Part shown: one piece after another, positions 3,560-6,481 of the stretch
Layout: the number at the start of each line of letters is the position of its first letter
Position numbering within the stretch: position 1 is the stretch's first letter
IMG/VR virus record: IMGVR_UViG_3300028840_005437
Coordinates: 1-52,138 of that record
Origin: a virus
Length of the DNA: 52,138 bases
Strand: one strand, 5' to 3'
Made by a program: the position numbers and the translations under genes
Notes under the pieces: generated by a model
Told to the model about the DNA's origin: nothing
Database searches by the model: none
The model's input: only the letters and a program-made list of their open reading frames with translations

Positions 3560-3578
3560 GAAAAATATCAGGTCTTCC

Positions 3579-3799: not shown

Positions 3800-3872
3800 C
3801 TCCCCAAGCAAGACTCGAACTTGCGACTTCATGGTTAACAGCCATGCGCTCTACCAACTGAACTATTGGGGA
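3800..3872 (-). tRNA. tRNA-Asn (GTT)
   Basis: Complete cloverleaf on the minus strand: acceptor TCCCCAA/TTGGGGA, D arm GTTC/GAGC, anticodon stem CATGG/CCATG with loop CTGTTAA (anticodon GTT), T arm GCAAG TTCGAGT CTTGC, discriminator G, no encoded CCA. Phage tRNAs usually supplement codons rare in the host or replace tRNAs cleaved by host defences. Confidence 0.93.
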
Positions 3873-4071
3873 TCAAAAAAAAATTACCGCGCAGCTCCGT
3901 GCAAAATCAAAAGCCGATCGTCCTTCGCTCGAAAAACTTTCTCGGAGATTTCATCATCTTTCAGCCTTAACCTTTAACCGATTTAAACTTTCAGCTTTAA
4001 GCCCTGAATCTTTAGCCTTAAGCTTTGAATTTTAAGCTTTGCCGGTTTAAGGTCCAATGGACCATAATCAG
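3873..4071. other. Non-coding spacer with quasi-repeats between two tRNA loci
   Basis: No convincing gene. The stretch 3957-4050 is built of degenerate AAGCTTAA / CTTTAAGC / CTTTCAGC words and contains the hairpin GGTCC-ATT-GGACC (minus strand) directly after the 5' tRNA half. It may be the trailer of the rearranged tRNA transcript. Confidence 0.5.
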
Positions 4072-4170
4072 TGCTTGATTTAGAGTCAAGTGCGTTTTCC
4101 ATTCCGCCACGTCTCCATACGGAAACGCCGGGATTCGAACCCGGAAACTGCTTGATTAAAATTCAAGTGC
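4072..4170 (-). tRNA. Candidate circularly permuted tRNA (3' half before 5' half; CUA in the 5' half)
   Basis: On the minus strand a 3' half comes first: anticodon-stem strand TCAAG (4155-4151), variable CAGTTT, T arm CCGGG TTCGAAT CCCGG, acceptor CGTTTCC (4127-4121), G. After only TAT comes a 5' half: acceptor GGAGACG (4116-4110), TG, D arm GCG..CGC, stem CTTGA, loop CTCTAAA. The acceptor strands pair with 7 bp (one G-U). Joined in tRNA order the halves give a normal 74-nt cloverleaf with anticodon CUA (amber). The anticodon arm is duplicated: 4072-4093 and 4149-4170 differ by three loop bases (the other loop, ATTTTAA, would read UUU) and lie 77 bp apart, one tRNA plus spacer. Neither half has its partner in the usual place. 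Permuted gene, dead tandem duplicate, or attP with a 3' tRNA half remain possible. Confidence 0.6.
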
Positions 4171-4229
4171 AGGGATACCCTCCCTGCGGGGAGACGAGTT
4201 CATGATTTTTCGCGCGGCAATTTTCAGTC

Positions 4230-6102: not shown

Positions 6103-6285
6103 TTACCTGTAGTTTATATGATCGACCGTCCTGAGCAATTTGTAGGCGCGAAGCGGTCTGTCATGGCATCTGATGGCATCCGACCTTTTCGTCGTGGAAG
6201 TGTCGATCGATTTGGGCTTGGGAAGCTCCCCGGAAAGTCGTCTGACGACCAGCTCGGCGGCTATATCGGCGATAGTGATGGCCAT
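6103..6285 (-). CDS. Small protein of unknown function
   Basis: 60 aa beginning MAITIADIAAELVVRRLSGE one base after the upstream stop. The C-terminal half is basic. The end may be disturbed by a frameshift, since protein-like sequence continues in another frame (5988-6098). No family recognised. Confidence 0.45.
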   Translation of the reverse strand: MAITIADIAAELVVRRLSGELPKPKSIDTSTTKRSDAIRCHDRPLRAYKLLRTVDHINYR

Positions 6286-6286
6286 A

Positions 6287-6481
6287 TTATTTATCCGCCT
6301 CCGGATTTCTCTCCGTGGCGTCGCAGTTCGGGGCGACTCTTTTCTGGACGTTGAATCGGCAATGCTCGCCTATCTTCAATTCCTCTGTCTCTTCCTTTTC
6401 CAGAGAGCCTTCGACGTAGAAAGGACAATACATGTCGCAGACACCCGCGACCGGCCATATCATAGTGTAAATAGGTTCCAT
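6287..6481 (-). CDS. Small Cys-containing protein
   Basis: 64 aa with four cysteines in a CDMYCPF...EHCRFN...APNC pattern, compatible with a single zinc site. It overlaps no neighbour; the next gene begins one base later. Function unknown. Confidence 0.55.
   Translation of the reverse strand: MEPIYTMIWPVAGVCDMYCPFYVEGSLEKEETEELKIGEHCRFNVQKRVAPNCDATERNPEADK

What the first reader, a model, noticed from the sequence alone, without database searches (positions are those of the whole stretch)
4072..4170. Apparent circularly permuted tRNA gene with amber (CUA) anticodon in its 5' half
The 3' half with a perfect T arm precedes a 5' half with a class-typical D arm, 3 nt apart. Acceptor strands GGAGACG and CGTTTCC pair, and reordered halves make a 74-nt cloverleaf. 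The anticodon arm is duplicated at 77-bp spacing (tRNA + 3), the footprint of a tandem duplication that lost both outer halves. Permuted tRNAs are known from some algae and archaea; I know of no established bacterial phage case. If processed and joined, it could decode UAG.
Basis: partly seen in the sequence, partly recalled or inferred. Interest (0 to 1): 0.85.

Follow-up and report, generated by a model that had tools for sequence, protein, structure and literature searches.

The report
Permuted tRNA-like RNA in a phage
A phage carries a tRNA-shaped gene with its two halves in reversed order; similar reversed genes turn up in many other phages and match the layout of a known tRNA-mimicking regulatory RNA (bacterial Y RNA), so it is probably a tRNA mimic rather than a working amber-suppressor tRNA.

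Summary
On the minus strand, a T-arm/3'-acceptor half (4170-4120) precedes a 5'-acceptor/D-arm/anticodon half (4116-4074), with TAT between them. Rejoined, they give a 74-nt cloverleaf that ARAGORN calls tRNA(CUA). About 0.007 such cores are expected per window by chance.

The layout is not unique. IMG/VR pattern scans returned dozens of permuted loci in large phages. Their acceptor stems differ in sequence but pair, and their outer ends often pair as well. A few lie within a few kb of a Ro60 (Rsr) gene, in phages and in Chryseobacterium, and some carry the YrlA consensus motif. That is the architecture of bacterial Y RNAs (YrlA): a capped acceptor stem, T and D arms, and a stem made by the RNA's own ends.

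My best reading is a Y-RNA-like tRNA mimic. In the window, the two quasi-palindromic "anticodon arms" can pair with each other as the terminal stem. I do not file it as YrlA: Rfam gives no hit, and the contig has no Ro60.

Decoding of UAG is unsupported: no BHB motif, TAG an ordinary stop, no CUA relative. A decayed tRNA duplication and a truly spliced permuted tRNA remain possible.

The parts
4151..4167 (-). Leader arm CTTGA-ATTTTAA-TCAAG: relic of an upstream tRNA copy's anticodon arm; can act as the 5' strand of a terminal stem
   Evidence: 86% direct repeat with 4074-4090; cross-pairing in fold
4120..4150 (-). 3' half: variable region CAGTTT, T arm (4144-4128), 3' acceptor strand CGTTTCC (4127-4121), discriminator G 4120
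4117..4119 (-). TAT spacer that, with G4120, caps the acceptor stem
   Evidence: acceptor hairpin present in the folds
4091..4116 (-). 5' acceptor strand GGAGACG (4116-4110) and D arm (4107-4092)
   Evidence: 7/7 acceptor pairs, D arm matches RF00005
4074..4090 (-). Anticodon arm CTTGA-CTCTAAA-TCAAG, anticodon CUA at 4083-4081
4051..4063 (-). Trailer hairpin GGTCC-ATT-GGACC
4025..4035 (-). TTAAAATTCAA, complementary to leader 4166-4156 (11 bp); lies in an AAGCTTAAA-rich repetitive stretch, so only weak evidence
   Evidence: shuffle P about 0.02
4169..4187 (-). Upstream hairpin GCAGGGA-GGGTA-TCCCTGC, in the place where the lost 5' half of the first copy would lie
4190..4196 (-). CGTCTCC, perfect complement of the 5' acceptor strand; possible relic of another 3' acceptor
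   Evidence: sequence; could be chance

Best explanation
The locus encodes a small tRNA-like RNA in circularly permuted order with the architecture of a bacterial Y RNA (YrlA type). Shown by sequence: T arm, acceptor stem closed by a short loop, D arm, and two quasi-palindromic anticodon arms outside them. Inferred: the two arms pair with each other (outer CTTGA/TCAAG, inner TCAAG/CTTGA), so the transcript's own ends form a terminal stem carrying a tRNA body. Such an RNA would be seen by tRNA-binding proteins and act as a tRNA mimic, tether or decoy rather than be joined into a decoding tRNA. It probably arose from a tandem tRNA duplication whose outer halves were lost.
For: Many phage loci share the layout, with different but paired acceptors and no complete tRNA on either side. 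Terminal pairing, not used to select loci, is significant (P<=0.05) in 21 of 42 permuted loci against 3 of 80 ordinary tandem tRNA pairs; in one 22-member group the terminal stem is 97% paired with double changes at 4 pairs (the trailer was picked by pairing, which biases this). Permuted loci lie within a few kb of Ro60 (PF05731) in phage contigs G004, G008, G025, G037, G024 (weak Ro60 hit) and in Chryseobacterium; L180, L185, L190 and L254 carry the YrlA-like GAATGC..NTACA leader motif. YrlA is described as a stem of the two ends plus a tRNA-like domain with D, T and acceptor arms (PMC8394870). In the window, with the tRNA arms held, the best fold pairs the two anticodon arms with each other (-28.2 against -26.4 kcal/mol for two local hairpins).
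Against: YrlA (RF02553) does not match the window even at E=10, and no Ro60 is found in the 52-kb contig. No relative of this very locus was found, so its conservation is untested. The energy difference between the two foldings is small and the unconstrained fold prefers other pairings. The intact anticodon arm with C32-U33...A37-A38 is more than a Y RNA needs.
Confidence: 0.5

Rival explanations
1. A non-functional relic: two tandem tRNA genes recombined or decayed so that only the inner halves remain.
For: 22-nt direct repeat at tRNA + 3 spacing, extending beyond the stems on both sides, is the footprint of a tandem duplication; acceptor pairing then follows from ancestry. A CGTCTCC relic lies upstream. 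No homologue of this locus was found. The terminal-stem evidence in the window itself is weak (P about 0.02).
Against: Every tRNA arm of the two inner halves is intact and the acceptor has a G.U rather than a mismatch, while both outer halves are gone; neutral decay would not be expected to spare the inner halves. The same layout is maintained in many unrelated phages.
Confidence: 0.27
2. A bona fide permuted tRNA gene: the ends are cut and ligated, RNase P and 3' processing open the capped acceptor, and the product reads UAG (or AAA if the leader arm is kept).
For: Rejoined halves are a complete tRNA by ARAGORN. In Ro60-less phages, rejoined permuted loci give complete tRNA-Thr, -Ile and -Asn, an ordinary-order tRNA(CAU) in L010 carries the same stem in a 62-nt insert, and some permuted copies encode CCA. 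Algal and archaeal permuted tRNAs mature through a circular intermediate (PMC3978253).
Against: No strict BHB motif in the window, and 6 of 42 loci against 9.1 expected. TAG ends 14 of 69 predicted ORFs including terminase and portal, with no sign of recoding. The rumen-type phages carry ordinary tRNAs with mostly the same anticodons, and anticodons vary freely between matching permuted loci. No splicing enzyme was identified; RtcB and T4-type ligase occur in only 1 of 21 contigs each. L078 has no anticodon loop at all.
Confidence: 0.15
3. A two-piece tRNA: RNase P cuts in the acceptor loop and the two fragments stay together through the acceptor stem and the terminal stem, as in two-piece tmRNA, without ligation.
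For: Acceptor strands are separated only by a short loop in front of an ordinary-looking tRNA 5' end (sequence); the pairing of swapped halves is as in permuted tmRNA (established knowledge, not tested here).
Against: No CCA; weak terminal stem in the window; the permuted tmRNA model gives only 12 bits.
Confidence: 0.05

Closest known systems
Bacterial Y RNA, YrlA type (Rfam RF02553; Rsr/Ro60 partner)
   Same: Order T arm, capped acceptor stem, D arm, with the RNA's 5' and 3' ends able to form a basal stem; found in phages and bacteria; tRNA mimic (PMC8394870, PMC7790460).
   Different: Window gives no RF02553 match, shows no Ro60 gene in its contig, and has complete anticodon arms instead of the conserved Y stem.
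Circularly permuted tRNA genes of algae and an archaeon (Soma 2014, PMC3978253)
   Same: 3' half before 5' half with a short intervening sequence; rejoined halves make a normal tRNA.
   Different: No strict BHB motif at the junction; duplicated anticodon arm; bacterial-type phage, and bacterial hosts are not known to have the BHB splicing endonuclease (from general knowledge).
Permuted (two-piece) tmRNA, RF04321
   Same: Swapped tRNA-like halves joined at the acceptor end.
   Different: No tag-peptide or pseudoknot region seen; 12 bits only.
Ordinary phage amber-suppressor tRNA (CUA)
   Same: Anticodon CUA and a class-typical D arm.
   Different: Gene order is permuted, CCA is absent and the phage shows no UAG recoding.

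Membership tests
YrlA / bacterial Y RNA | Permuted tRNA-like domain: T arm, capped acceptor stem, D arm | tested here: met
YrlA / bacterial Y RNA | Basal stem formed by the 5' and 3' ends | tested here: inconclusive
   two possible pairings (arms with each other; 11-bp leader/trailer helix); shuffle P about 0.02
YrlA / bacterial Y RNA | Match to RF02553 covariance model | tested here: not met
   no hit in the window at E<=10 or in G000
YrlA / bacterial Y RNA | Ro60/Rsr (TROVE) gene nearby | tested here: not met
   none in the 52-kb contig; contig may be incomplete
YrlA / bacterial Y RNA | Binding to Rsr and PNPase | not testable with these tools
   needs biochemistry
Circularly permuted tRNA gene | Rejoined halves form a canonical tRNA | tested here: met
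Circularly permuted tRNA gene | BHB splicing motif between leader and trailer | tested here: not met
   strict hBHBh' absent; a loose 3/4/2 arrangement between the two arms can be drawn by eye only
Circularly permuted tRNA gene | Expressed joined tRNA and circular intermediate | not testable with these tools
   needs RNA from infected cells
Amber suppressor tRNA of a recoded phage | UAG recoded in the phage's genes | tested here: not met
   long structural ORFs open in code 11; TAG ends 14 of 69 predicted ORFs

The most novel reading that the evidence does not exclude
The window belongs to a class of phage tRNAs interrupted by small non-BHB inserts that occur in two topologies (insert closed = intron-like, insert open = permuted gene) and are spliced by an unknown machinery into working tRNAs, here an amber suppressor: these would be the first permuted tRNA genes known in bacterial viruses.
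Probability: 0.15. Interest if true: 0.92.

Novelty: new variant of a known kind. Interest (0 to 1): 0.58.

Why it matters
Standard annotation (ARAGORN, Rfam at gathering scores) misses these loci, yet they recur in many large phages, often without the Ro60 partner and with intact anticodon arms. They make it directly testable whether phages use permuted tRNA mimics against anticodon nucleases or RNA decay (YrlA has been suggested as a competitive inhibitor of such a nuclease, PMC7790460), or whether bacterial viruses have an unrecognised way to splice tRNAs. For the amber reading, the result is a caution: a CUA loop here is not evidence of UAG decoding.

Tried and rejected
Relatives of the window through the neighbouring 206-aa ORF and DnaB: none in IMG/VR. 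Named-phage BLAST of the core: the hits examined were single or tandem ordinary tRNAs or short chance matches. Terminase and helicase-loader searches gave only distant phages of mixed hosts, so the host is unknown. Genome-contig scan with the rumen-type motif: mostly unrelated T arms, but two Chryseobacterium genomes and a Weeksellaceae MAG carry permuted loci. Group I/II introns, hammerhead, HDV, twister: no Rfam hit on the permuted loci tested. BHB splicing: no excess. Assembly collapse of a tandem pair: rejected, because the two arm copies differ at 3 of 22 positions. Papers on permuted tRNAs in phages or bacteria: none found in the open library; most subscription papers, including Chen 2014 on Y RNAs, could not be read.

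Full report
Observation. The two arms are an 86% direct repeat at 77-bp spacing. ARAGORN and Rfam at gathering scores see only a tRNA-Asn at 3800-3872. Rejoining the halves gives a 74-nt tRNA(cta) by ARAGORN. One such core was found in 150 dinucleotide shuffles of the window, so it is very unlikely to be chance.

Context. The record is a 52-kb virus contig with HK97 capsid, portal, minor tail protein and DnaB, and DnaD-like helicase loader, terminase, baseplate and excisionase-like proteins. Close relatives were not found, and terminase and loader matches are distant and of mixed hosts. The standard code fits: TAG ends 14 of 69 predicted ORFs.

Relatives by layout. Pattern scans of IMG/VR for a T loop followed by a D arm and for motifs seen along the way gave mostly ordinary tandem tRNAs, but also many loci with no complete tRNA on either side and acceptors that pair 6-7/7 with quite different sequences. 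Their outer flanks, not used for selection, also pair: 21 of 42 permuted loci at shuffle P<=0.05 against 3 of 80 ordinary tandem pairs. In the rumen-type group (leader ..ACTTACAA; the rumen origin of these metagenomes is my recollection of the IMG numbers), 22 distinct loci show a terminal stem 97% paired with double changes at 4 pairs, and double changes at all 7 acceptor pairs. Acceptors and trailers were chosen by pairing, so these two numbers lean upward.

What they resemble. A permissive Rfam scan pointed to YrlA, the bacterial Y RNA described as a stem of the two RNA ends plus a tRNA-like domain with D, T and acceptor arms, bound by Rsr/Ro60 (PMC8394870). Scores stay below the gathering value, and ordinary tandem tRNAs also reach 35 bits, so the score alone proves nothing. 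Gene neighbourhood does better: permuted loci sit within a few kb of Ro60 in G004 (L015), G008 (L043), G025, G037, G024 (weak Ro60 hit) and in Chryseobacterium, and L180, L185, L190 and L254 carry the GAATGC/NTACA leader of the YrlA consensus. Ro60 is not exclusive: 3 of 20 control contigs have it too, one of these weakly, and most permuted contigs lack it. In a Listeria phage, abundant RNAs near an Rsr-like gene were proposed as Y RNAs (PMC12282133); TROVE proteins are known in jumbo phages (PMC7824862).

The Ro60-less group. These phages carry large ordinary tRNA sets with mostly the same anticodons as the permuted copies, and anticodons differ between matching permuted loci, which argues against decoding; L078 has no anticodon loop. 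Yet rejoined L108, L080 and L105 loci are complete tRNA-Thr, tRNA-Thr and tRNA-Ile, and in L010 an ordinary-order tRNA(CAU) carries the same stem in a 62-nt insert (junctions chosen by me to restore the anticodon stem). Mimic and spliced tRNA cannot be separated by sequence here.

The window. In the 97-nt unit the two anticodon arms, being quasi-palindromes, can pair with each other: outer CTTGA/TCAAG and inner TCAAG/CTTGA, the inner one being the anticodon stem of the cloverleaf across the halves (-28.2 against -26.4 kcal/mol for local hairpins when the tRNA arms are held). The direct repeat extends beyond the stems, so origin by tandem duplication is still likely. A second, 11-bp leader/trailer helix is weak evidence (P about 0.02, repetitive trailer). 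Strict BHB is absent, and YrlA and Ro60 are absent.

Verdict. The permuted tRNA-like gene is real; it works most likely like a Y-RNA-type tRNA mimic (0.5), with decayed duplication (0.27) and spliced permuted tRNA (0.15) as rivals. Membership in YrlA fails two tested features, so it is scored as a new variant of a known kind.

Noticed in passing
L010 minus strand 6172-6303 (contig IMGVR_UViG_3300028048_000050): Ordinary-order tRNA(CAU) with a 62-nt insert in the anticodon stem that carries the same stem and CTACAA motif as the permuted loci; removed, it leaves a complete tRNA.
   Followed up: partly
L014 2668-3950 (437-kb phage contig): Three permuted loci with a shared leader GACATCCCGCCGRGATGAGCNTACAAGCAA (one varies at the start) and a GGGC..GCCC hairpin between the acceptor strands; the phage encodes RtcB and no TROVE was found.
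   Followed up: partly
L124 2263-3720 and L115 minus strand near 3562: Chryseobacterium chromosomes carry several permuted tRNA-like loci with leader AAGTGYCGT...TACTTCG within about 4 kb of Ro60; they look like Y RNAs below Rfam's cut-off.
   Followed up: partly
L054 (284 kb), L196, L203, L226, L188: Another permuted group with leaders like TTAGG..CAGCA and trailers like CCTGTTTAAT; no Ro60 found in the contigs.
   Followed up: partly
window 3940-4045: Degenerate AAGCTTAAA/GGCTTAAAG repeats between the permuted locus and tRNA-Asn.
   Followed up: no
window 4120-4184 minus: The 3' half with its own leader scores 29.2 bits as a D-arm-less tRNA (GGGAGGG pairing with CGTTTCC), just over Rfam's cut-off in a restricted search.
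   Followed up: no
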